Source: Rhodamnia argentea
Taxonomy: Eukaryota > Streptophyta > Magnoliopsida > Myrtales > Myrtaceae
NCBI RefSeq assembly: GCF_020921035.1
Contig: NC_063152.1
Span: forward strand, 27,961,903 to 28,025,902
Reading direction: 5' to 3'
Length of the DNA stretch: 64,000 nucleotides
A model generated the notes under the pieces. That model was not told where the DNA came from. It saw only the letters and a list, made by a program, of their open reading frames with translations, and searched no databases. Positions 3,722 to 53,799 of the stretch are shown one piece after another. The translations under genes were made by a program, and so were the position numbers. How positions within the stretch are numbered: position 1 is the stretch's first letter; the number at the start of each line of letters is the position of its first letter.

Positions 3722-4941
3722 CAAGAAAAAGTCAACTAACTTGACTTATTATTATTCCTTATTCTCTCACGTTTATGTTTAGAGCGGAAGACCGAACTCC
3801 AAGGTTACACACTTTATCAATGAGTTCAAGAGAGAAGCTGAACTCAAAACGGGAGAACTTTTCTGATAGCTGTTTTTATGTAATTGCAACCGGATTTGAT
3901 CCCCAACCTAACCTAAACGCTCAAACTCAAGCACTCATTAACCATCGGGTCGGATGCTCGGTGGCAATTTTAATAGCTTTTTGGGAAAACCAAGAACGTG
4001 AACAGACCCGAAAATGTAGAAACTACTGCTACAGAAGTGATGAACAACAGAGCTTGCAAAAGGGTCAGCTATTCGAGTAGCTTTTGGGGGATGATTTGAA
4101 GCTCAAGACAGGGGCGGCCGAAAAGTGAAAAAAAAAAAGGAGTGCGCTCGCGGCACTTGAAGTAACGTTGAACCCAAGTCTTGGATGATGCCAAAGCCAT
4201 TATCTTCGGGCGATGCTCATGACAGGAGGGTTAAGTAAAAGATCAGATGAACACGAATCATTCTTCTTTCATTCCCTTTTTTGAAGGCTCTTCGCAACAC
4301 GAGACCATCAGCAAAATGCAGCAGCTCAACGCCGAGGTGCGATGAATGCACGCACTTTTGCTGCTTTGATGCAGACACTTTCGTAAGACGACCCAATGTC
4401 CGAACTTGCTCGTAGATCGGCAAGAACAAGAATCTACCTGGACAAGAAAGGGATGAGAATATTAGCGTTACCTAATTTTTTCAATAATTTAGTGTTTAAG
4501 TAATCTAATCCCCTTCACGAATCCTCACGATCACCATCCACCCACTGGGGCCCTTTTATCGGAATCGATCTTTCGCAGACACGCGCGCGCACAACGCAAA
4601 CGCATGCGAGAGACACACACATGTGCTGGTCTCTCTGCCGTCGGATTTCCCTTCTCTCTCTCTCTCTCTGCCAAGCTGACGAAGAAAAGAACCTTCTTTT
4701 GCCAGAAAATGTGTTTCATTTCTGTAAAAATGTCACTCCTCCCCGTTCTTTGAGAGATTTATACTCACTGATTCTCTGACAAGGAGAGCCAAACATACCC
4801 ATTGTGTACTCGATTCAAAAATCAAAACTTTCCCTTCTTATATCCTCCACCTCTCTTTCCCAGTTCGGGTCGTACACCTGTAAATCCGACAAATTCGGCA
4901 ACTTTCCCGCATTTCCGAGCTCAGATTTTGTCTGAATTTGG
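3722..4941. other. Intergenic region and SINA gene upstream
   Basis: No credible gene. Open frames here are short and compositionally random. A (TC)n microsatellite lies near 4652-4670. The last few hundred bases, with pyrimidine-rich stretches, are presumably promoter and 5' leader of the SINA-type gene. Confidence 0.4.
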
Positions 4942-7480
4942 ATGGAAACTGATAGTATTGAATGCATAACGTCCCTAGATGGCACGGACGAAGACGAGAT
5001 CCAGCAAAATCCCCACCACCATCTTCACCAGCAATTCCCTTCCAAGTCGTCTCACGGCAATGGCGTCGTTTCCTCTGCGATTCTTCCCAGCACCACCCGC
5101 GTCCACGAATTGCTCGAGTGCCCAGTATGCACCAATTCGATGTACCCTCCAATTTATCAGGTCATTCTCTAATTTTGACACTTTTGGGTCAACGGGTTAC
5201 TGTGATTCGCTGTGCTGCTTCATTCCTCACCTTTGCGACATTGGTAGGTGAGTATGTTCATCAATTTGTTGGATGGCGTTTGAGTTGATTAGCTGGTTGA
5301 TTTCAGCTTCAATTTCGACATTAATAGAGTGTTTTGAGGTAATAATGGAAGTTTCTGGAGAATAACTTTGTGAATCATGTGGGGCTGTGGGATAACCCCT
5401 CTTGGACTATAGAAATGAGCTGGTGCGATTTTGGTGGATTTGGCTTTAGATATAATGGTGCACTCTTGGGGGAATTGGCTGCTGCTGGGTCATAAGTAAC
5501 TTCTTGAAAATAAAAGTAGTCCTTTCATGTCTCTAGTGACTTGTCGAAGTTGCTTCTCTGTGATTTGAACTTGGTTATGTCTAAGGTCGATTTGCTTGTT
5601 ACTCTTGCTGCTCAATATTTTGGTGAGAGAAATGCTTGACTTGAACATCCAGATATGAGTGTCACTCGGTACTATTGTTCACAAAATAGAAAGAATTCCA
5701 GATATATCCGCCACCTTTTCAGCTATAATGTGGGAATTCCATGAACCTTTCTTGTTCGTCAGAAATCAGGATAGTAGATGGGGTACTTTTCTTCTTGTAT
5801 CCCATGCTGAGCAGGAGCATTGTAGGTAATCATCCCTTCTTATGTCTTTCAAGGCAAAGGCATTGAAACGAAACCTTTGTTTTCTTAGTCGTTTATTTTT
5901 CATTTTTGTTGGTCATCTTGATTATATCTAGTTTGCTGCCCTTGATATTCTGCCGTTTAGTTATTTAATTAAAGCAATACTTCAAGAGTATGGAAACATG
6001 TTATGTTTTTTGGAAGATGCCACTTTTCATGCTATCTAAACTTATGAATTGTCGAGGACGGTTGCAATATTACTTTCACTGTGCTTTCTAGTAACATTTC
6101 TGAATATTTCCCCCGGGATGTTGTGAACTTTGAGAAGCAGCTCCTTCATGAATGGAGTTTGTTTGGCTAAACAATCATCACAACTTTCTCCTTGCAGTGC
6201 CACAATGGGCATACACTTTGCTCAACCTGTAAAACCAGGGTTCATAATAGGTGTCCCACATGCAGACAGGAGCTTGGTGATATTAGGTGTCTTGCATTGG
6301 AGAAGGTGGCAGAATCACTTGAGCTGCCTTGCAAGTACTTCTCTCTTGGGTGCCCAGAGATATTTCCTTACTACAGTAAACTCAAACATGAGGCTCTCTG
6401 TAACTTCAGGCCATACAATTGCCCTTACGCCGGTTCAGAGTGCTCTGTCACTGGGGACATTCCCTTCCTAGTTGCTCATCTGAGGGATGACCACAAAGTG
6501 GATATGCATTCTGGATGCACTTTCAACCATCGATATGTGAAGTCTAATCCACGTGAAGTAGAAAATGCGACATGGATGTTAACTGTGAGTATCCACTAAC
6601 CCATGATCTTTGCAAGGAAAAAATTGATAAAAATCATCTTTTCGTAATGAAAAGGTTTCTCAGGGTTGCTATAAGAAGTACAGTTGCTTTATTGGGAATT
6701 GATTTCATTTTGGATATTTAATCATCAAAAAATAATCTGGAATTCTCCTTTCTTTCATTGTTTTTTTTATCGTTTCCTTTTAACACGGGAAAGTAAATTA
6801 TGTGGCCTTGTCAACATCCACAAACTTCAGAATCACTCTGATTTCACCGTGTTTACATTGAGATATGCTTGTCCAGTCAGGTTTTGAACTATTATTGACT
6901 ACTTTTAAGTGCCACCACTATTCATAACGATAGCACTGAGTCTGTAAGCCATATTTACCTTGACTATGTGAAGTTTCAGTATTTAACTGCAAAATAGATA
7001 TTAAGAGAGTTAATATGTCCATGAGTAATTCCTGAACTACCTTCCCCTGCATTCTGTGAATTAAAGATGTGACTGAATGACCATGTCCAAAACCTTTTTC
7101 GCGTGCCATATGTTCAGGTCTTCCACTGCTTTGGACAATACTTCTGCCTCCACTTTGAAGCATTTCAGCTTGGAGCGGCTCCTGTTTACATGGCATTTCT
7201 CCGTTTCATGGGTGATGAGATGGAAGCACGGAACTACAGCTACAGCTTGGAGGTTGGGGGGAATGGTCGGAAACTCATATGGGAGGGCACGCCACGAAGC
7301 ATAAGAGATAGCCATAGGAAGGTTAGGGATAGCCATGACGGTCTAATTATACAGCGCAACATGGCACTTTTCTTTTCTGGAGGAGACAGAAAAGAGCTGA
7401 AACTTCGGGTTACAGGACGGATTTGGAAAGAGCAGCAGAATCCAGAAGGTGGGGCCTGCATACCCAACCTGTGTAGCTAG
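4942..7480 (+). CDS. SINA/SIAH-type E3 ubiquitin-protein ligase
   Basis: Three exons, 4942-5160, 6198-6584 and 7118-7480, all phase 0, encode about 322 residues, normal for plant SINAT proteins. These E3 ligases transfer ubiquitin from an E2 to targets and dimerise through a TRAF-like C-terminal domain. The RING is split by intron 1: ELLECPVCTNSMYPPIYQ in exon 1, then CHNGHTLCSTCKTRVHNRC and PTCRQ in exon 2. The SIAH zinc fingers follow (CKYFSLGCPEIFPYYSKLKH, CPYAGSEC, HLRDDHKVDMHSGCTFNHRY), and the substrate-binding domain ends GGACIPNLCS, a plant SINA hallmark. The N-terminus (residues 1-55) is acidic and His/Gln-rich, as is usual. The family is certain; the orthologue among SINAT1-5 is not resolved. 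Introns are about 1.0 and 0.5 kb and show nothing else. Confidence 0.95.
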
Positions 7481-35200: not shown

Positions 35201-35284
35201 TTTCTCTCTTGCAAGTGGACCTGTCAAAATGGGTCTTAAACTCATATATGACCTATTTAAGAAATAAATGGGTCATATATGGGT

Positions 35285-35690
35285 CACTCTTTCCCCTCCC
35301 CTCGCTCGCGAGTCGCCATATTCTCATCCTCTAAGTTCCAACCTAGCTCTGCACGGTCGCGCCTCAGCGTCTCGTTCGACTCTTCGAGCTTTTCGATCCG
35401 CCTCATCAAGTTGGCAACGGGGTTCTTGGAGCTAATCATGCCCTTGAGCACCTACCTGGACAGGGGACGCCGTCTCTCGTATGAGCTTGTGCTTGAGAAG
35501 CAGCTCGCGCTTGCGGAGTTCCCCAACCAAGCGGAGGAGCTCAGAGATGTCCGACGGGCAGGGCTGGACCTGGGCGAAGGAGTGCGGGAAGTAGGCGCTG
35601 AAGGAGTGGCGGAATGCCGCCTTCGGGGAGGAGCACTTGGCGGAGTTAGGCGACGACGACGGCTTCAGAGGATCATTGATGACCAGTCTA
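35285..35690 (-). pseudogene. Fragment of a CHUP1/IPGA1-like coiled-coil protein gene
   Basis: The minus strand reads SAKCSSPKAAFRHSFSAYFP, then SDISELLRLVGELRKRELLL and KHKLIRETASPVQ. After a frameshift near 35440 it continues in another frame with GMISSKNPVANLMRRIEKLE and ESNETLRRDRAEL. The SELLRLVGELRKRE block followed by a leucine-heptad coiled coil is typical of the N-terminal part of CHUP1-like and IPGA1-like proteins (chloroplast-positioning and microtubule-associated). Only this part is present: no start codon in context, the frame is broken, and there is no actin-binding or C-terminal domain. It lies wholly within the hAT-like element, so capture is the simplest explanation. The plus-strand frame over the same stretch is a shadow. 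Confidence 0.6.
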
Positions 35691-36770
35691 ACTGTTGTTT
35701 GTGGCCATCTTCTCCCTCAATCCATTTTTTAAAAATTATTTTCCATTCGAGCCCAACCACCCCTTATTCAACCCAGAAAAGCAAGAGCTTCGCAAAAATC
35801 CCTACAGAGAGAGAGAGAGTGCCATAGAGAGGAGTAGGCCTTTGCACATTGTGTTTCGAGATCACAGAATTCAACGCTTCCTCTTAAAGGTTTGCATCGC
35901 TTTTGTTTAACAACAAAGGTGTCCCATTTGAGATTCCAAGTCGAATCTGTTTCTGTTTCTAATTTTGTCCAATTCCCTGAAAATCAACTCTTCTTTAGCA
36001 TCACACATTCTGGACGCTTTGCTTGCTTCCTGCGGTTGAAGAGGGTGGTGCCGGCAGTGGAGGAAAGGGCAGAGTCGCATGAGGCGAAGGGGAGGGTCGA
36101 GCATGAAAATCTGTTGAAATGTTTTTTTTTTTAAATTATATCTTATATTTGCTAAATACTGAGTTTGTATAGTTAAAAAAATAAGTTCGTACTAATTTTT
36201 ATATGACTCTTTACAATTTATCGAAGCATTGAGTCATCACTTTAATCTCAATTAATTTTACTGGGAAGATTATAGAGTGACCGGGAAGAGAATAGGTAGA
36301 ATCGTATAAGGAAAAATCAATATGCGTGGCAGGCCGGCTGTGGCGGGGCGGAAGGTGGTGGCGGCCGAGTGGGCGACGGTGGGGGTGGGGGCTCGTCCGT
36401 GACGTCGAACCTCGCCTGTGGTCGGTTAGGGTTGGGCAGCCGTTGCTAATTGTAGAAAGGAAAAAAAAGAAAAAATAAATCATATTTTATAAAAGGAAAA
36501 AAATCACATTTCTAAAAGAAATAAAAATAAGAAAATTCAAATTTTTTAAAATTATAAAAAAAATATAAAAATTGTCCACTATTACTAAATATAGAAGTAT
36601 TTTAGTAATATGAGTCGAGTCGGGTATGAATTGGGCATGGGTTCGAGTCGGGTATGGATCAATAAATTTGTACTACACATAAATGAGTTATAAATAGGTT
36701 AATAGGTCAATTTGGATCGGACCATTTATGACCCAATTCAAACCCAATCCAATCCACCCCGTTTAACAGG

Positions 36771-37310
36771 TAGGGGTATGCAACTGGACCGGATTTACCC
36801 CGAACCCGGATCGGCCCACCCAAAAAACAAGGTCGGGAATCGGTTCTCGCTTAAACCGATTCGGGAATCGGTTCTAGGTGAAGACCCACCCGGACCGATT
36901 TTAGAACCGATTTTTAGTTTTTTTTTAAAAAGAAATCCTAGGTGAAGACCCACCAGTTAGGTCTATCGTCGCTTGCTCTTTAGTTGCCTCACGTCCCTCA
37001 CCTCCTCTCGGTCCTCTGTTTCTTCCCATCTTGTCGTATTATCTATTATATTTTAGACTGTTGCTTTTGGTGGATTATAATTTTTATTGGTTATTTCATT
37101 GATACTCATATTATTTTGATTAAAAAAAAAAGAAAAAATAGGTTTTCGGGTAGACCCTGGAACCGGACCGAAAAACAGGATCGGTTCCAAAACAGGTTTC
37201 AAAATAAACGGGGTCGGTTCTCGGTTCTAAAAGCTGAGAACCGGTTATAACAGGGTCGGTTTCGGGGTCTAGATTTAGACCCGGCCCACCCGGCCCATGC
37301 TCACCCCCTA
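36771..37310. mobile_element. Nested hAT-like element (540 bp)
   Basis: Starts TAGGGGTATGCA, ends GCTCACCCCCTA. Flanks are TTAACAGG (36763-36770) and TTGACAGG (37311-37318), a 7/8 target duplication lying in the right terminus of the larger element at 35216-37322, so it inserted second. The interior is made of GGTTCC/GAACCGG words arranged as degenerate inverted repeats around an AT-rich centre. Non-coding. Confidence 0.72.
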
Positions 37311-37371
37311 TTGACAGGTCTACTTGCAAGCCATTCTCTTCTTACACACCCCTAACGGTGACGCCTTTTTG

Positions 37372-38006
37372 TAGGGGTGAGCATGGTTCCAGGGTAGAAG
37401 CGAGAACCTAAACCCGAAACCCGTAGGATCCTGTCTGGTTCCGGGTTCCAAGGAATGCGGGGTAGGTTCCAGGTTCCAAAAATTGAAGAACCTGTCATAA
37501 CGGGTAGGTTCCGGGTTCCAAGTAGTGGAACCTGGAACCTGGATCTTGAACCCTAGATCCCGAAATAAATTTATCTATTTTTCTTGGTATATATTTTTGC
37601 ACGATCCTATAATGTTCTATGGCATCCGATGATGAGTGTATAATCTTTTGGTCTCTCACGGTAAGTTTCGGGTTCCAAAAAATTATAAACATGCTCCAAT
37701 GGATTGGTTTCAGTAACTAAATATAACATGTACGAAATCTAAAATAACTCACCTCTACTTTCTCTTAGATGTTATAGCGTTCACTTTCATTTTGCTTAAC
37801 TAAAAATGAAAAAAGAAAATAAAATAAAAGAAATTGATAGGTTCTTGGGTACCCTGGAACCGACCCTAGAACTTGTGATAGGGTAGGTTCCAAGTTCTAA
37901 AGTATGACGGGTAGGTTTTAGGTTCCAAAAATAAGGAACCTGTTCCGACGGGTAGATTCCGGGTTCCAAGTGGAACCTGTAAGGAACCTGTAACCGCTCA
38001 CCCCTA
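37372..38006. mobile_element. hAT-like element with perfect target duplication (635 bp)
   Basis: Starts TAGGGGTGAGCA and ends GCTCACCCCTA, a good inverted pair. Perfect 8-bp direct repeats CCTTTTTG flank it (37364-37371 and 38007-38014). The ends are full of GGTTCC/GGAACC words. It is the same family as 36771-37310 and 3396-3713, only 50 bases from the former, and has no coding capacity. Confidence 0.78.
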
Positions 38007-38938: not shown

Positions 38939-39294
38939 CGCGATCCTTACACAAAATATGATTGAAGTATTATATTGGAAAAATTATAATTTTTTTTAAA
39001 ATTTGGTAAGTTCAAAAGTGTCGATGATATTTAGTCAGATTAGAAAATTTTGCAATACTCATAGTTTAATCGTTTAAAAGTGAGTTGATATTTTTTAGCT
39101 TTACTTAGAGAAGATGATTGAAAATTTTGCGATATCCAAAATCAAGGTGCAAAATTATATCTGATTTGAAATGGCTGATATGGGAGATTGTGTGGGACCC
39201 GGATCGAAGTTTCCGAATCCCAGTAAAGCTCGTAGAACGCTTACATAATTCCAATCTAAAAATATCACTGGACTCTATTGCTCCTAGGGTTTAT

Positions 39295-39310
39295 GTGTAT
39301 ATATATCTAT
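39295..39310 (+). promoter_or_regulatory. TATA box of the eIF4A-III-like gene
   Basis: TGTATATATATCTATA lies about 65 bases before the start codon at 39371. The same stretch is altered in the broken duplicate near 42625. Confidence 0.5.
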
Positions 39311-39370
39311 AGCTCGCTCCAGACGGACAGATTGTCCTCTTGCCCTTTCTTCATCTCTTTCGATTCGGCA

Positions 39371-42209
39371 ATGGCGACGGGGCCAGAAGTGGAGGCCGTG
39401 GCGACCTTCGACTGCATGGGCCTGAGCGATGATATCCTCCACGGCATCTATGGCCACGGGTTCGACAAGCCTTCCGCGATTCAACAGCGAGCAGTGGTGC
39501 CGATTGTCCAAGGCCGAGACGTTATTGCTCAGGCGCAATCTGGCACTGGCAAAACTTCCACCATTGCCCTCGCGTCTTGCCATATCGTGGACACCTCCAC
39601 AAGAGAGTACGTGACGTCGTGACCCTCCATTCCAAACCCTTCTGTTGCTTTGTTTCTTTTTTTTTTTGTTTTTACTGGAATTAGGTTAAGGCATGTTATG
39701 CGTTTTGCTTTGGAAGGTAAGATGAGTCATTATAGAGCTCAACCTATGACACCAAGGATAAATAAATAAAAAAATTCGCAAACCTTCTCTCTCGAATTTC
39801 TAGTGTAACAAAATTTAATCTTTTTGGTTTTCAACTTCGTTAACCGAAGAATTTGAGATGTTCTGATGTTGAGGCATGTTAGTTTTTGGGGAAGCGTAAA
39901 TTGATATTTGGTGAGGGTGTATTGTTTTGGCTATTTACGACAAGGAGGCAAGATCGGTAGTCAAGGAAACACCTTTTATGAAGTGGAAAATAATTACAAG
40001 GCTATTGGGTGTTTGACTAGTTTTTTTTTCTTTTTCTTCTATACTTACAAGAGCACTATCAAGCCTATTTATAGGCAGATTCCACCGACACTACAATCAA
40101 CATACGGTGAATACATGGCCCACGTGTCTTTATTGCTAACCATGTACACTTTGACTTGTCAACCAAGATTTTTCTACACACTCTAGATTATTCTATACTA
40201 CTCCTTTGCCGTATGAGGACTAGATATTTTAGGATTTTTCTGGATTTTTCTAGTAAATGGATCAATTCTTAACAAGGCAGAAGTTTGTTTTGAGAAGCTT
40301 TCTTTGGAATGTTTAAGTGGGTGCTCTTAACTGAATATGTTGGGCACTTGCTAGGCATAAAAGATTTTCTTCATTATCCCCTGACTCCTTTGCTTGTATT
40401 TTGTTGATTTTCAGCCTACCCTTTTTTATTTGGCTCTCTGAAAGTTGCAATTTGTTTTTTTGGTTGCCGCCTTTTGGCCGTCAATTTTGTCCTTCTTCAT
40501 GTTCCGTGCAGTGTGCAAGTGCTGATTTTGTCACCTACGAGGGATTTGGCGAGTCAGACGGAGAGAGTTGTGCTGGCTATTGGTTATTACAAGAACATAC
40601 TAGCCCATGCCTGTGTTGGAGGGAAGAGCATGGGCGAAGATACCCGGAAATTGGAGCTCGGAGTTCATGTCGTGTCTGGAACTCCCGGCAGGGTTCTCGA
40701 CATGATAAAGAGGAGAACTCTTCGTACTAGAGCTATCAAACTCCTAGTCCTTGTGAGTGCACTGCATCACCTCCTTCTCCTTCGACTCCGGATCATTTCA
40801 GGTTTCTTTTTTGCTTTCTGCGCAAACAAGTTCTCACTTTTCGCCCACCTTCATTCTTTTTCCAGGACGAAGCTGATGAGATGCTGAGCAGAGGATTTAA
40901 GGATCACATCTTTGACGTTTACAGATACCTACCGCCGGAGCTTCAGGTTCCCTGTCCTTTATGTTGAGTTCATGTGTAGTAGTAGTAGTAAAGACGACTT
41001 CTTTTGCCCGATAACCGAAGTAATAGTCCCTAGTTTTCTCACCCCTTGGCTTAATTCCATTGCAGGTTGTCTTAGTTTCAGCAACACTCCCCACTGAGAT
41101 TCTGGAGATGACAGGAAGATTCATGACCGATCCGATACGGATTGTTGTGAAGCGTGATGAGTTGATGCTGGAGGTGAGCTATAGTGGGTTTGTTGCATTC
41201 GATGGCGGCTAGGGATTATGATAATTTTTTGACACCCACGTACCTTTTATTCGTATGGTTACAGCGCGTCAAACAGTACTTTGTGTCAGTGGAAAGAGAA
41301 GAGTGGAAATTCGACACTCTGTGCGATATATACGACGTCTGCACTATAAGCCAAGGAGTCATATTCTGCAACACCAAGCGGAAGGTACGATCCCAGTCAG
41401 GTTCCATTTTGAGGATGACTCAGAGATTGTGAAGAACTCCACTGCTTTATTTCCCTTTGATCTATGTACTTTGTGCTGTGGCTCATCATGTAGTCCATAT
41501 ATTTGTCCTCATCATGCATTCCTTATATTTGTCGAGCAGGTGGAGTGGCTTGCTGAAAAGATGCGTGATTGTAACTTCACTGTGTCTTTCATGCACGGTG
41601 ACATGCCTCAAAGGGAGAGAGATGCAGTAATGGCTGCATTTCGATGTGGGGCGACTCGGTTGATGATCACTACCGATGTGTGGGCTCGAGGGATTGATGT
41701 TGAGCAGGTTAGTCCTAAAAATTTCCATCACTGCTGCATCCTACTGTTTTTTTTTTTTTTTTTTCCGCATTGTGCATTGGCTCATTGGTATGTTGGATGC
41801 TTGTTCTTATGGAAGGACAAATTTCTTGTTTTCCCTGTTGGACCACGACCGTTTAATTGGGCGAGTGGACGACTGAATCACTCTCAATACACACTGTAGG
41901 TTTGTCTTGTCGTCAACTATGACCTTCCTAACAACAGAGAGCTGTACATCCATCGGGTTGGTCGAGCAGGCCGTTTTGGGCGGAAGGTGACTATTTTGAA
42001 TATTGTAGTGGAGGCAATCGCATTCCTATTTGCATTTTCTTCAATAGGTGTAACGATAAATGTTTACAAATGCCAATCGCTGTCTGCTTTTGCAGGGCGC
42101 TGTGGTAAATCTGGTCAAGGACAAGGAAATCCAGATTCTTAGAGACATAGAACAGTACTATGGCACCACTATAGCTCAATGTCTGGAGGACCTTCCTGAT
42201 ATAATTTGA
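39371..42209 (+). CDS. eIF4A-III-like DEAD-box RNA helicase, complete
   Basis: Eight exons: 39371-39606, 40512-40752, 40866-40946, 41066-41173, 41265-41384, 41540-41707, 41900-41986 and 42096-42209, together 1155 bases and 384 residues. This is the family of the exon-junction-complex helicase eIF4A-III. Motifs in order: [20 protein letters not shown] (Q region), AQSGTGKT (I), [11 protein letters not shown] (Ia), GG, TPGR, LDEADEML (II), VSATLP (III), VIFCNTKRK (IV), [13 protein letters not shown] (V) and [13 protein letters not shown] (VI). It is shorter at the N-terminus than canonical eIF4A-III (about 405). It differs at conserved places: DEAD where plant eIF4A-III usually has DESD, PTRDL for PTREL, and VCLVVNYD. 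All introns are GT-AG and in frame, so it looks functional, but it is a diverged paralogue rather than the housekeeping copy. Confidence 0.9.
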
Positions 42210-42529
42210 CAAGATAAGAACATTTAGAAAGGCCGTGAAAGGCTTCCTGTTAATAGCCTAAAGCAAAGCGTTACGTTACTCCTCACCCATAAATTATCGC
42301 ATTCTTTGTTCTTTTCAAAACTTGGGAGGCGGTTGGGTTGTGTTTCGAATGTTTAATTCAAGGATTTTATCTTATGTATTTTGAGTTTCGATCTTTGAAC
42401 ACGGGCTCATACACGAATGGTGTCTTACCACAAAAAATATGGAAACCATTCGACAATTTGGGTAATAACTTATTGACTTATTCCTGACCTTGTCAACTCT
42501 TGTGTGCAATTACATGCTCAATTTGACCG

Positions 42530-43068
42530 GGATCGGAGTTTCCGAATCTCAGTAAAGCTCGTAGAACGCTTACATAATTCCAATCTAAAAATATCTATGA
42601 ACCCTATTGTTCCTAGGGTTTGCGTGTATATTTCTATTGCTGGCTCCCTCATCTATGCCAAGAGACAGGCAGATTGTTCTCTTGCCCTTTCCTCATCTGT
42701 TTCGATTTAGCCAGAGGCGATGGCGGAATTCAAGACGGGGCCCGGCGTGGCGGCTGTGGCGAGCTTCAACTGCATGAGCCTGAGCGAGGATGTCCTCCGC
42801 GGCATCTATGGCCACGGGGTTCGACAAGCCTTCGGCGATTCAACAGCGAGCGGTGGTGCCCGATTGTCCAAGCCAAGGCCGAGACGTGATTGCTCCGGTG
42901 CAATCCGGCACCGGCAAAGACTTCCACCATTGCCCTCGCGTCTTGCCATACCGTGGACACCTCCACAAGAGTGTACGTGACCCTGCAAACCCTTCTATTA
43001 CTGTCTGTTTTCTACTCCTTAATTTGCTTGTATTTTGTTGATTTTCAACCTACCCTTTTTTGTTAACA
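42530..43068 (+). pseudogene. Broken duplicate of the eIF4A-III-like gene 5' end
   Basis: 42530-42980 repeats the leader and exon 1 of the gene at 39371, including the shared upstream words GTAAAGCTCGTAGAACGCTT and CCTAGGGTTT. The copy starts MAEFKTGPGVAAVASFNCMS at 42720 but slips frame in the [12 protein letters not shown] region (42820) and again near the P-loop, destroying GTGKT context. 43020-43068 repeats the 3' part of parent intron 1 (TTGCTTGTATTTTGTTGATT), so roughly 750 bases of the intron are deleted. Because intron sequence is present, the copy arose by DNA duplication and not by retroposition. No further exons follow; family B and LINE sequence begin instead. Confidence 0.85.
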
Positions 43069-43559: not shown

Positions 43560-46148
43560 CCCCCCCCAGGGCCTGGACCTACCCTTTGTGCAAGAGGTGC
43601 TCCACCAACTTCGGGTACGTCATAGGATTAAAAAAATTCCAAGCTATACTAAAACTCGATATGTCTAAGGCCTATGACCATGTTGAATGGGTTTTCTAGA
43701 GGACTGTATGCTTAATATGGGCTTCTCCTCGTGATGAGTTTCTTGGATCATGGAATGCATTCGCACAGCTACTTTCAGTATTAAAGTAAATGGCACTCTG
43801 CTTCCTTACTTCCAACCAACAAGAGTCTTGCGCCAAGGAGAACCGCTCTCACCATATCCCTTCATCTTGGTATCCAACATCCTTTCTTTTATGTTAACTC
43901 AAGCAGTACATGATGGTAGTTTCACAGGTATTACCGTTAATCATCATTGTCAGACTCTTTCGCATCTCCTCTTTGCGGATGATGCTATGTTCTTCCTAAA
44001 TGGGGTGCCAGAGTTTGGCTTATATCTTGAATCAATACTGATATGCGTCGGGCCAGGAGATCAACCTCAATAAATCAGGCATTTTCGTCAGCTTGGGCTG
44101 CCCTCCATCCTTACGTTCTACATTGGCTGCTGAATTACGGGTTCCAGAGATTACTCAAACAGGGAAGTATTTGGGCTTGCCTTCAGATTAGGGCTAGACT
44201 AAAAAATAGCTTTTCTCTTGGATACTAGCCAGAGTCCATGGCAAGCTCGAAGGGTGGAAAGAAAATTTGTTCTCAATGGATGGAAAGGAAATATTAATCA
44301 AAGCAGTCATTCAGGCCATTCCTCAGTATGCCCTGACAGTGTTCAAAATTCCGCTTTCAGTGTGCCGAGCCATTCATAGACAGATTGGCCTTTTTCGGTG
44401 GAAAAATAGCAACGCCAAATCTAGCCTACATTGGGAAAGCTGGGACGTCCTTACTCGTAGTAAGAAAGAGGGAGGCTTGGGGTTTCGAGACCTTATTCAC
44501 TTTAACAAGGCAATGTTAGGTAAAATCGCATGGCGGCTGCACTCAGCTTCTTCCAACTTATGGGCAACTTTATTTAAAAGTTTATACTTTTCTTGGACAT
44601 CCTTTTGGGAGGCAGGCAAGGGTAGCCTCCCTTCGTGGGGTTGGCAAAGCATCCTTGCAGGTCGGGACCAAATAGCCCCATAAGTCCATTGGCAAGTCGG
44701 TAATGGCCATCATATCCGTATCTATTATGATCGATGGTTACCTTCGGGTCTCATTCAGGGGCAGCCGCACTCAGGAAACCCTTCCTTGGTTATAGCTGCA
44801 GCCCTTATAACTTCATCGGTGCAGTGGGATACTACCCTAATTTCATCTATATTCCCTCTTGAAACCGTAGCTGAGATCCTTGCCATTCCCCTAAATCCAC
44901 TACTGCCCGAAGATAAAATAATTTGGACGCTACATCACACGGGCCTCTATATAGTTAAGTCCTCCTACTAGCGGTCATATCTGGCCTCCCCGTGTCAACC
45001 ATCGACTGCACCATCTTCCTCCTATCATCGACCCCCCACTTTATGGTCTACTCTTTGGAAACTACCTATCCCCCCAAAAATCAAGCAATTTCTATGGCGA
45101 GTTTCCCAGGATGCTTTGCCTACTACTGTGACCTTAATGAAGAGGAAAATCTTACCAAATTCTTCTTGTGCCATATGCCGTCAAGCTCCTGAAACCCTCG
45201 AGCATCTTCTGCTCCTATGTCCCTGGATAAAAAAAGGTTTGGCAGGATCAGCAACTTAATCTAAAAATTATCCCACGAACAGTCACAAGAATTGAAGACT
45301 GGCTTTCACAGGTGTTGTCTAGCCGCTCTCAATCACCTCGTCCTTCTAACGCTCTCATTGCCCACACCCTTTGGCAAATTTGGAAGGCACGGAACCACTT
45401 AATCTTCCGACAGTAGCCTCCCAATCAATGGCATGTTCTTCAAGTAGCAAATGCGAATAATCTCAGCTTCTTGCGATGGAATCCTCAAGCTACTCGGGTC
45501 AATGACAGACAAAGTAATCCAACGAATAATGGACAGAGGTGTGTTGATTTACTTGTTTCGTGGAATCCCCCTCCATCGGGAACAAGGAAATTGAATGTGG
45601 ACTGATCACTCATTCCAGGCAAGAAAACTGGCGCCATGGCTGGCCTCCTACGAGATTCACAAGGCCATTGTTTGGATGGATTCACCCTAACAGTAGCTGC
45701 TTCAGATCCAGAGCAAATTGAGACTATTGCCTGCTGCAAGGCCCTTCGTCTTTACGTTGACCACAAACTTCGTGATCCCATTGTTGTAGAATCTGATAGT
45801 GGTAATGTGGTTGCTGCTCTTCGACATCTTCAACAATCGCCTTCCTCCTTCGATGACGCCCTCTCTCTTCAGACCTCGTGCACGTCGTCTCCTCTTCTAT
45901 AGGAATGCATTCTTCTATTGGATCGGGTTATGGCCTCAGTATCTTTTGGCCAATGCCTACGAACTGCAAACTAGGCCGCACACTGGTTGGGCCAGGCCCA
46001 GCGGCACGGCGTTCTACCTTGTAACTGGCTTTTGTACCTACCTCCTCTACTTAAGGTCCTCCTATGCTCGGAGGCCCACTCCTCTTGCAACTTGACTTAA
46101 TGTTTGTTTCTAATAAAATGTGTCTTTCATAAAAAATTAAAAATAAAA
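43560..46148 (+). pseudogene. 5'-truncated LINE (non-LTR retrotransposon) remnant with RT and RNase H parts
   Basis: Several frames in one orientation give the reverse transcriptase and downstream parts of a plant L1-type LINE. They run from a KLDMSKAYDHVEW block and VLRQGEPLSPYPFILVSNI, through the LFADDAMFF catalytic box, to a zinc-binding RT-associated region (GGLGFRDLIHFNKAMLGKIA, then CAICRQAPETLEHLLLLCPW). An RNase-H-like segment (CCKALRLYVDHKLRDP, VVESDSGNVVAAL) follows. Stops and frameshifts break it at many points (for example near 43700 and 44070). ORF1, the endonuclease and the start of RT are missing. The end near 46130 is A-rich with AATAAAATG. The 5' boundary is approximate, and no target duplication was found. 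Confidence 0.85.
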
Positions 46149-51600: not shown

Positions 51601-53799
51601 AAAGGCTTTTTTCTGTCATGAATTTGCATTAGAATTTTTGGATTGTGACCTTGGTCTCTGCAGATATGGAGTCAGTCCATTCACTCCTCTGAAAGGAATC
51701 CTGATTCGAGGTCCCATCTTCATTAGTTTTTTGTTTGCTGTAAGATTCAAGCCTCAGTCCATGCCGTATGTGCAAGATATTAGATTTGCAATTGACATTT
51801 ACAAGGCTCCTGCACTGACTTGATCTATGTAGATAAGAAACATGGCGGAAAAAATTCCGTCTTTTCAAACTGGTGGAAATCTCTGGTTTGTCAATCTGGC
51901 CACTCCAGATAGCCTTTACATCCTACCAATCCTGACAGCTCTGACCTTCTGGATTGCTGTGGAGGTTAGCATTTCAATGTTGTTTAATTAAGTTCTGTAA
52001 AGCTAAGGATCTTGGATCATATTATGACGAGGTAGTATAAAGTCTTTAGCATTATGGCTATTCACTTAGCTTGTAGGTTTATCCAATGTGCGTTGACTCC
52101 ACGTCTCAGCTAGCACCTGGAATTTCACTTGACGATTATTCTTTCATTCGTTCTTTTGCTTGCATGCATAGATGTCCGTCTGATAGACTGACTGAACTGA
52201 GATTTTCTTTTATCAGTTCCATTTGGAAGAAGGACTCGAGGGAACTGCTGTGGCTGGTAACCTCAAAAATTTCTTTAGGATCCTCACTGTTCTCTCAGTT
52301 CCAGTTATGATGTGTTTCCCAAAGGTATTATTCCTAAGACTGAGTTTTCATGGTTCTTCCCATATATCACTAGTCTTTTGTTCATCTGAATGCAAATCTG
52401 AGACAGATCAAGCATATAGCAGCTGAGTTGGTGGTAACCGTTTATTTTTTTATTTTTTTTTATTTTTTTTTTTATTTTTTTTTTTTTTTTTTTTTTGGGG
52501 GGGGGGGGGTGGGTGGTGGGGTTTAATCAAGTAAGGGGTTCACGATGCAAGGGAAGACTTCATGTTTAGCTTCAATACTAGGGATACGATGACCTATATG
52601 GCTTGAATAATGAATACCTACTTGCCATGGAGTGTCGAATTATGGTCTGCATCTATCACATGAATCATGATTCTCTTTCTGATAGTTCTGACTGGTAGCT
52701 TGTATTTCGAGCTGCTCGTTCTTACTGATCAATATATTGATAGTCAATTTTCCTTTCTTCTGGTCACAGATTTTGACTTTATTGATAAATTCTCCTTTTC
52801 CTAACTCAATTGCAGGCGATGTTTGGCTATTGGCTTACCTCCAATCTTTTCTCCCTCGCATTTGGGTTAGGTCAGTCTTTCTGACTGTAGCATACACTTT
52901 TATACCCTCACCCTAAAAAAGAAGAGACATGAGAATGCAAGAGGTCCAACGGTACTTCACTTTCAGAATTGCCTTTAGAGAATAAGTTGCAAACTTGGTG
53001 AAAATATTCATATGTAGGTGCTGCTTTCCAAAGCCTCTGGGAATACAGTTGATATGTTTCTTTCATGTTCCCTAAAAAAGAAGAGACATGAGAATGCAAG
53101 AGGTCCAACGGTACTTCACTTTCAGAATTGCCTTTAGAGAATAAGTTGCAAACTTGGTGAAAATATTCATATGTAGGTGCTGCTTTCCAAAGCCTCTGGG
53201 AATACAGTTGATATGTTTCTTTCATGTTCCCTATCCTTGTGAAATTAGTCACCAGTTATTCTTGAAATGCTGCGATCAGAACGTTATGTTGGATGCAAGG
53301 TAGGGAGCCTTTAGGACAAGTAAATGTGATGGGATTGTCTTCTGGCTTCGCATATGGATTACTGTTCCTGTTCCACTATTGTGCTAAGCTTCTACACGGT
53401 GAAGGGCTCGAATCATGTTTGGCGAGTGTTGACCTTCTGATTGCAGTAAATTGGCATTGATCATGCCATAACCACAAAAGTGATGGTGGATATTCATCTA
53501 AACATTATTGAATATGCTGACTGAAAAGATATAACACGTTAGACAAGATTGGTCACCTTGCAGCGCTTTAGTACGCACTTCGGTCTTGAGGACAGGAGTT
53601 GTCCAATTATGGGATCTCATTCTTTGTTGCAATGACATTGTGTCTATCTCCACCAATTGCAGTGGTAAAACAGCCAGGAGTCAAGAAATTCCTGAAAGTT
53701 CCTGAGGCACCGGTTTCACCTGTGTCTGCATCGCAGCAATTCTCTCAAGCCCCTAGCTCAAGAGAAAAAGATGATGGCAATGAAACAAAACTAAGATAG
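48606..53799 (+). CDS. OXA1-like mitochondrial inner-membrane insertase (YidC/Oxa1 family)
   Basis: Nine exons: 48606-49072, 49392-49482, 50626-50673, 51081-51139, 51664-51739, 51833-51964, 52217-52324, 52816-52870 and 53663-53799, together 1173 bases, 390 residues. OXA1 inserts mitochondrially and nuclear-encoded proteins into the inner membrane. The first 100 residues are a basic presequence (MACRRSLSTTGTLIARRLRL). The YidC core follows: PVAAIEYLIGAAHSFTGLNW, WASIALTTVLIRGATVPLQI (first helix after the intermembrane part, containing the catalytic-region Arg), LMRPHVEELNRTVRETANAP, FKEYGVSPFTPLKGILIRGP, NLATPDSLYILPILTALTFW, then MFGYWLTSNLFSLAFGL and KQPGVKKFLKVP. Several short exons are missed by simple frame scanning but are clear by splice logic. 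The tail is Ser/Lys-rich. Family secure. Confidence 0.93.
52437..52511. repeat. T-tract running into a G-tract in OXA1-like intron
   Basis: About 55 bases that are almost all T (interrupted by single A) followed directly by about a dozen G. Within intron 7 of the OXA1-like gene. A sharp pyrimidine-to-G switch is prone to polymerase slippage, so its length in the assembly is doubtful. Confidence 0.85.
52911..53233. repeat. Perfect tandem duplication, 2 x 159 bp, in OXA1-like intron
   Basis: 52911-53069 is repeated without a difference that I can see at 53070-53228, both starting CCCTAAAAAAGAAGAGACAT. The unit length is divisible by three, and the minus strand is open across both units. This is why a repeated 53-residue reading appears; I see no sign that it is a gene. 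Either very recent or an assembly artefact. Confidence 0.9.

What the first reader, a model, noticed from the sequence alone, without database searches (positions are those of the whole stretch)
35208..37330. hAT-like transposon that appears to have captured a CHUP1/IPGA1-like gene fragment
Seen: 8-bp direct repeats CTTGCAAG, inverted termini TGGACCTGTCAA / TTGACAGGTCTA, and inside them a minus-strand fragment with a recognisable SELLRLVGELRKRE coiled-coil block broken by a frameshift, next to leader-like sequence and a GC-rich patch. Known: Pack-type elements carrying host gene pieces are well described for MULEs and less often for hATs. Inferred: capture, and possible small-RNA silencing of the parent gene by the antisense or sense fragment.
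Basis: partly seen in the sequence, partly recalled or inferred. Interest (0 to 1): 0.75.

Follow-up and report, generated by a model that had tools for sequence, protein, structure and literature searches.

The report
Old gene-carrying jumping element, multi-gene mosaic
A plant jumping gene of the hAT type carries broken pieces of at least two host genes picked up long ago, and relatives of it with subsets of that cargo sit elsewhere in the genome; it is a well-anatomised example of a known phenomenon, with no sign of function in the sequence.

Summary
At 35216-37322 lies an element with 11/12 terminal inverted repeats and an 8/8 target duplication; the window has two such candidates, 8 shuffles none. 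(2) The cargo is a mosaic: part of exon 1 of a CHUP1-like gene (intact at C3:11.52 Mb), an abutting piece of the probable 5' leader and intron start of a bZIP gene (C11), and 138 bp also on C10. CHUP1-like homology stops inside the termini. Relatives carry the CHUP1 piece without the bZIP piece (C2, C5), or the reverse (C4). Three copies, this one included, share a 15-bp deletion, so the capture is old and was propagated. Other exon copies found are partial; this one is frameshifted. No 21-mer of the element matches the CHUP1-like locus exactly, so silencing it is unlikely today; one matches the bZIP leader. No empty site or RNA data were available. Pack-hATs are in print for maize, and hAT transduplication for grapevine.

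The parts
35208..35215 (.). Target-site duplication, left copy CTTGCAAG
35216..35286 (+). Left terminus and subterminal region of the outer hAT-type element; relatives at L018 5267-5336 (80%, window 35218-35288) and L047 237-291 (82%, window 35218-35268)
35287..35672 (-). Cargo 1: piece of the first coding exon of a CHUP1-like gene (intact copy C3:11521855-11522352), 73-76% DNA identity, frameshifted
35673..35720 (-). Extension of cargo 1 shared with L017 (to 35717) and L018 (to 35720) but not aligned by BLAST to the intact gene
35721..36029 (+). Cargo 2: matches the probable 5' leader and first-intron start of a bZIP gene (C11:17815498-17815816), 74%
36030..36117 (+). Segment shared with the C4 copy (L047 to window 36049; L050 from window 36047), origin unknown
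36118..36184 (+). Element backbone: also in L050, and beside the distal subterminal region in L018 (36118-36181, 73%) and L016 (36112-36173, 70%)
36184..36321 (+). Cargo 3: 138 bp, 85% to C10:22226766-22226903; no match in the C4 copy; origin not identified
36322..36449 (.). GC-rich patch; partial matches only (C9 81% over 36285-36364, C8 71% over 36360-36554); origin unresolved
36450..36580 (.). A-rich sequence with matches at many genome places
36581..36770 (-). Right subterminal region of the outer element (relatives in L018, L038, L050); its last 8 bp TTAACAGG are the left TSD copy of MITE A
36771..37310 (.). MITE A, nested hAT-type element; 39 further genome places among the scored candidates, 74-83%
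37311..37322 (-). Right terminus TTGACAGGTCTA; its first 8 bp are the right TSD copy of MITE A
37323..37330 (.). Target-site duplication, right copy CTTGCAAG
37372..38006 (.). MITE B, separate neighbouring hAT-type element, TSD CCTTTTTG on both sides; ends resemble those of MITE A

Best explanation
A degenerate non-autonomous Pack-hAT. An ancestral hAT-type element acquired, at the DNA level, part of exon 1 of a CHUP1-like gene. This copy also holds part of the leader region of a bZIP gene and probably a third piece. Cut-and-paste transposition by a transposase encoded elsewhere spread relatives with different subsets of cargo. This copy inserted here, making the CTTGCAAG duplication, and a high-copy MITE landed in its right terminus. 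Shown: termini, TSD, nesting, source loci, relatives with shared cargo next to shared termini. Inferred: the trans-acting transposase, the way cargo was gained (fusion of neighbouring insertions or template-switching repair) and the order of events. It most likely has no function now.
For: TSD and TIR above chance. Nested MITE is an independent repeat: 33 of 39 other scored places begin at query 1569-1576 (window 36768-36775); 7/8 TSD here. The intact C3 gene aligns only to window 35287-35672 and is CHUP1-like by PDB match, E 7.6e-91. L018 holds cargo 1 and the same terminus in the same order and strand; L017 and L040 end in TTTGACAAGTCTA and TTTGACAGGTTTA after cargo 1; L040 is a 516-bp element with 7/8 TSD and 9/13 TIR. 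Homology to the gene begins at 4821-4830 and ends at 5154-5159 in W, L016, L017, L018. A 15-bp deletion is shared by W, L016, L017 and not by the gene, L019, L037, L039. Cargo 2 lies at a bZIP gene where BLAST found no element terminus in the 1.5 kb compared; in C4 copy L047 it abuts the element terminus without cargo 1; W and L047 agree against that gene at 49 columns, other pairings 37 and 16. Cargo 2 has no match in the 10-kb stretches of L016, L017, L018, L040.
Against: No TSD partner for L017 or L018; L016 ends are decayed (by eye). L037, L038 and L039 carry the exon piece, yet no terminus was found beside it. L037 and L039 lack the 15-bp deletion, and L038 seems to keep part of that sequence, so more than one capture or an early split is possible. 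The common right breakpoint holds under strict BLAST only; laxer scoring takes W to 5229 and L017 to 5198. Shared base differences may partly reflect change in the gene. Leader and intron of the bZIP gene are inferred from sequence without transcripts. No transposase was linked to these termini: the terminus search and the PF05699 search did not complete. The TGGACCTG end departs from the usual hAT end motif (recalled).
Confidence: 0.87

Rival explanations
1. Chance termini: the inverted repeat and 8-bp repeat flank ordinary degenerate intergenic sequence with a pseudogene fragment.
For: TIRs are short; no other whole copy appeared among the scored candidates.
Against: No 8/8 TSD with 11/12 TIR in 8 shuffles; the same kind of terminus next to the same cargo at L018, L017, L040 and next to cargo 2 at L047.
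Confidence: 0.03
2. Several independent captures of the same CHUP1-like exon by different mobile elements, the exon being a recurrent source, with W one of them.
For: 17 places besides the intact gene hold pieces of this exon, the window included, among them a C1 cluster of six and a C5 cluster of three with other breakpoints; L037 and L039 lack the 15-bp deletion.
Against: W, L016, L017, L018 share breakpoints under strict BLAST; W, L016, L017 share a 15-bp deletion. No matching terminus pair was seen at the C1 and C5 clusters in the stretches scanned, so a carrier is not shown there.
Confidence: 0.22
3. A functional Pack-hAT that regulates a parent gene through small RNAs or makes a chimeric product.
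For: A 182-aa plus-strand ORF crosses cargo 1 and 2. Cargo 2 has 1 exact, 7 one-mismatch and 45 two-mismatch 21-mers of 320 against the bZIP leader stretch.
Against: Against the CHUP1-like exon 0 of 530 21-mers exact, 4 with one mismatch, 17 with two. The ORF has no Pfam match and runs antisense to the exon. Cargo 1 is frameshifted.
Confidence: 0.06
4. The CHUP1-like piece is an ordinary processed or tandem pseudogene beside which hAT ends happened to insert.
For: Cargo 1 lies within one exon, so it alone cannot tell DNA from RNA capture.
Against: Same terminus-cargo arrangement on other chromosomes; abutting cargo 2 appears to include intron sequence.
Confidence: 0.04

Closest known systems
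Pack-hAT elements, named for maize; rice also surveyed (Pack-TYPE, Gisby and Catoni 2022, PMC8903248; passages and section 9 seen)
   Same: Non-autonomous, TIRs, 8-bp TSD, internal host gene pieces; families whose members carry different cargo, with two genes in one Pack-PIF subgroup
   Different: Cargo here is more diverged (about 74% against 93-98% in the paper's Pack-PIF and Pack-Mariner examples); right end split by a nested MITE
Hatvine-6 transduplications of grapevine (PMC2528002; passages seen)
   Same: hAT elements with variable internal host exons and introns
   Different: Hatvine-6 members share a transposase coding sequence; none was recognised here, where only the longest ORF of the element was scanned
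Pack-MULEs of rice (known here from passages of the papers above)
   Same: Host gene pieces inside TIRs
   Different: MULEs have long TIRs and 9-bp TSDs (recalled); here short TIRs and 8 bp
hAT-type MITEs (MITE A and B here)
   Same: 8-bp TSD, short TIRs starting TAGGGGT
   Different: No host gene cargo recognised; MITE A is high-copy (MITE B's copy number was not tested)

Membership tests
hAT superfamily (non-autonomous) | 8-bp target-site duplication | tested here: met
   CTTGCAAG 8/8; relative L040 7/8; none found for L017 and L018
hAT superfamily (non-autonomous) | Short terminal inverted repeats | tested here: met
   11 of 12 at the outer ends
hAT superfamily (non-autonomous) | Terminal motif of plant Ac-like hATs (YARNGNTG, recalled) | tested here: inconclusive
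   Window ends TGGACCTG/TAGACCTG fit poorly; TAGAGGTG ends of L018 and L040, and of a related element without this cargo in L038, fit; compared by eye
hAT superfamily (non-autonomous) | Mobilised by a hAT transposase | not tested
   The PF05699 search of the genome did not complete
Pack-TYPE element | Host gene piece inside the TIRs, homology ending inside them | tested here: met
   CHUP1-like exon 35287-35672 and bZIP leader region 35721-36029
Pack-TYPE element | Parent gene present elsewhere, intact | tested here: met
   C3:11521855, 435-codon open frame; C11 gene with bZIP exons, whose intactness was not tested
Pack-TYPE element | No transposase of its own | tested here: inconclusive
   Only the 182-aa ORF inside the element was scanned and had no Pfam match
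Pack-TYPE element | More than one copy with related ends | tested here: met
   L017, L018, L040, L047/L050
Mutator-like (Pack-MULE) | 9-bp TSD and long TIRs (recalled) | tested here: not met
   8-bp TSD; the best end-to-end TIR alignment spans 16 columns

The most novel reading that the evidence does not exclude
One small exon of a CHUP1-like gene, intact at one place in this assembly, has been picked up repeatedly: by a Pack-hAT family and in at least two other multiplied contexts (C1 and C5 clusters), leaving at least 17 pieces in one genome, so that this exon is a capture hotspot and not a one-off cargo.
Probability: 0.25. Interest if true: 0.5.

Novelty: new member of a known kind. Interest (0 to 1): 0.32.

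Why it matters
It is a worked case of stepwise cargo gain by hAT-type elements: in one genome there are copies with cargo 1 and no cargo 2, with cargo 2 and no cargo 1, and with both, which fits fusion or template-switch models. It also shows how a nested MITE can hide a Pack element's true end. It does not change what is known about gene capture.

Tried and rejected
Protein database search with the cargo peptide found nothing (45 candidates, none at E<=10); that says little, and I suspect plant proteins are sparse there. Pfam found nothing in the cargo peptides beyond a sub-cutoff TSC22 hit. Rfam: no match in the window at gathering scores. The plus-strand 182-aa ORF at 35279-35827 was considered as a product and set aside: it runs antisense to the exon. 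An 'intron' seen by eye in window cargo 2 (acceptor near 35999) was set aside: in the C11 gene the intron appears to run on. The 6-bp gap shared by W, L016, L017, L018 and L037 was dropped as a marker because it may be an expansion in the gene. Silencing in trans was tested by 21-mer match: against the CHUP1-like exon unlikely, against the bZIP leader not excluded; copy L037 shares 14 exact 21-mers with the exon stretch, its longest shared run being a GA repeat. Paper searches listed nothing closer than the two papers cited, by title and abstract start; one search looked for IPGA1 and was not followed.

Full report
WHAT IS THERE. The window lies at C3:27961903-28025902 of a 346.7-Mb assembly of 74 contigs. 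Between a gene stretch with GUB_WAK_bind, WAK_assoc and RING domains (31.2-32.9 kb) and a DEAD-box helicase stretch (39.3-41.9 kb) sits the element described. Its ends are TGGACCTGTCAA and TTGACAGGTCTA, flanked by CTTGCAAG on both sides. A scan of the window for TSD plus TIR found four candidates, two with 8/8 TSDs, this one and 37372-38006; eight shuffles gave six candidates in all and none with an 8/8 TSD. W below means the window's copy.

NESTING. The right end is interrupted. A 540-bp MITE (A, 36771-37310) with ends TAGGGGTATGCA / TGCTCACCCCCTA sits between TTAACAGG and TTGACAGG, a 7/8 duplication, 12 bases from the outer end as it stands. In the own genome the 2141-base query gave 42 non-self rows at 39 places (74-83%; three rows are second pieces), each within query 1562-2117, which is MITE A give or take ten bases; 33 of 39 begin at query 1569-1576. 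Only 40 of 778 candidates were scored, so this is a lower bound and says nothing about the other parts. Seven copies were read; three show perfect 8-bp duplications by eye. Without MITE A and one duplication copy the outer element is 1559 bp. A second MITE (B, 37372-38006, TSD CCTTTTTG) starts after 49 further bases beyond the outer end.

CARGO 1. window:35285-35745 on the minus strand matched six places in the genome: itself, C3:11521920, C4:27237438, C2:9065530, C5:15537062 and C1:19746364 (6 of 6 candidates scored). The C3 place holds a 435-codon open frame. Further open stretches downstream, joined by eye, match PDB chains named Protein CHUP1, chloroplastic (8wag, E 7.6e-91). Homology with that gene covers window 35357-35672 at 75.5%, or 35287-35672 at 72.7% with laxer scoring. 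A protein search gave 17 rows: the gene itself over 166 of 166 residues, and 16 partial rows at 15 places, some with stops and some open (41 of 41 candidates scored). With the two DNA-only places (C5:15537062, C1:19746364) there are 17 partial places, the window included.

SAME CARGO, OTHER COPIES. L018 (C5) matches cargo 1 and the window's left terminus in the same order and strand. L017 (C2) ends in TTTGACAAGTCTA after cargo 1, L040 (C2) in TTTGACAGGTTTA. L040 has a partner end TAGAGGTGGCAAATGAG 516 bp away with 9/13 TIR and 7/8 TSD. L017 and L018 gave no TSD partner. L016 (C4) shares sequence with L018 on both sides of cargo 1, but its ends have decayed. In the intact gene's coordinates homology begins at 4821, 4827, 4830, 4826 and ends at 5159, 5154, 5154, 5156 in W, L016, L017, L018; under laxer scoring W reaches 5229 and L017 5198. 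A 15-bp deletion is shared by W, L016 and L017 and is not in the gene, L019, L037 or L039. L018 and L040 have no sequence at that spot, and L038's homology begins inside it. Of 28 pairs among eight copies, identities run 61-83% and 25 are 71% or lower, against 71-78% to the gene, so the capture is old. Shared differences from the gene exceed the independent expectation in all 21 pairs counted (L038 not counted; for example W-L016 25 against 7.7), but changes in the gene lineage would give the same signal. L037, L038 and L039 carry the exon piece with no terminus found beside it.

CARGO 2 AND 3. window:35746-36580 matched C4:30913487 (77%), C11:17815498 (75%), C10:22226766 (85%), C4:30924524 (79%) and, for its last 130 bases, many places (40 of 48 candidates scored). 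The C11 place matches window 35721-36029, starting where the cargo 1 match of L018 ends at 35720. It lies about 1 kb upstream of exons that encode a bZIP (PF00170, 34.6 bits, cut-off 27.6, on two exons joined by eye; the first alone 24.7 bits, below the cut-off). I read it as 5' leader plus first-intron start, so the cargo would hold unspliced genomic DNA; no transcript was available. The C4 place (L047) begins with the window's terminus (window 35218-35268, 82%) and passes directly to cargo 2 with no CHUP1 piece. It is then interrupted by about 10.7 kb, of which only the edges were read, and resumes at L050 with window 36047-36184, followed directly by right-subterminal-like sequence (window 36604-36735, 64%), without cargo 3. 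No TSD was found for the C4 copy by eye. In L018 and L016, too, window 36112-36181 sits beside the distal subterminal region, so 36185-36603, with cargo 3 and the GC-rich patch, looks like an insertion peculiar to this copy among those read. Cargo 2 proper (35721-36111) has no match in the 10-kb stretches of L016, L017, L018, L037, L038, L039 and L040. W and L047 agree against the C11 gene at 49 columns, W with the gene at 37, L047 with the gene at 16. Cargo 3 (36184-36321, C10) has an unidentified source.

HOW IT WORKS. The best model is a non-autonomous hAT-type element that gained host DNA more than once and was moved by a transposase in trans. The published model for Pack-TYPE elements is re-mobilisation of neighbouring insertions as one unit (PMC8903248, section 9). 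Copies with cargo 1 and no cargo 2, with cargo 2 and no cargo 1, and with both fit that model or template-switch repair. I saw no internal terminus remnant at 35720/35721 by eye, so the choice is open. The transposase is unidentified: the searches for it and for further termini did not complete.

FUNCTION. Cargo 1 is frameshifted. Of 530 21-mers of 35211-35760 none matches the intact exon stretch (L015 4601-5400) exactly, 4 match with one mismatch and 17 with two; the longest exact match is 16 nt. None of 1535 21-mers of the outer element left of MITE A matches the 9.9-kb locus exactly on either strand. Against the C11 leader stretch 1 of 320 cargo 2 21-mers is exact, 7 have one mismatch and 45 two. 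Silencing of the CHUP1-like gene is therefore unlikely today; for the bZIP gene match alone does not exclude it. No expression or small-RNA data were available.

NOVELTY. Pack-hATs are described in maize (PMC8903248, passages and section 9) and hAT transduplication in grapevine (PMC2528002, passages). A 2026 review (PMC13317346, passages) has no word beginning with 'hat' in its main text. I rate this a new member of a known kind.

Noticed in passing
window 37372-38006: Second hAT-type MITE with 8/8 TSD CCTTTTTG and ends resembling MITE A, 49 bases from the outer element.
   Followed up: partly
C1:19740371-19810618 (L019, L044, L045, L046): Six pieces of the same CHUP1-like exon (about L015 4921-5072) within about 70 kb; no matching terminus pair seen in the four stretches scanned.
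   Followed up: partly
L041, L042, L043 (C5:22706538, 22777615, 22864540): Three copies of a shorter piece of that exon (about L015 4863-4986) inside open frames of 154-188 codons; the window's cargo matches one of them at 84% over 100 bp, the gene matches it at 80% over 124 bp.
   Followed up: partly
C4:30913779-30924486, between L047 592 and L050 288: Insertion of about 10.7 kb in the element relative, starting near TGTCACGACCC; possibly an LTR retrotransposon; only its edges were read.
   Followed up: no
L038 5776-6812: Another hAT-type element of related ends (AAGAGGTGTCAAATG ... CATTTTGCCACCTCTA) without the CHUP1-like cargo, near a piece of the exon.
   Followed up: no
window 39196-39615 and 42525-42981: Direct repeat at 82% around the helicase region, with a sub-cutoff reverse transcriptase match at 43750-44073.
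   Followed up: no
window 52911-53233: Identical 164-bp direct repeat, the two copies overlapping by 5 bp.
   Followed up: no
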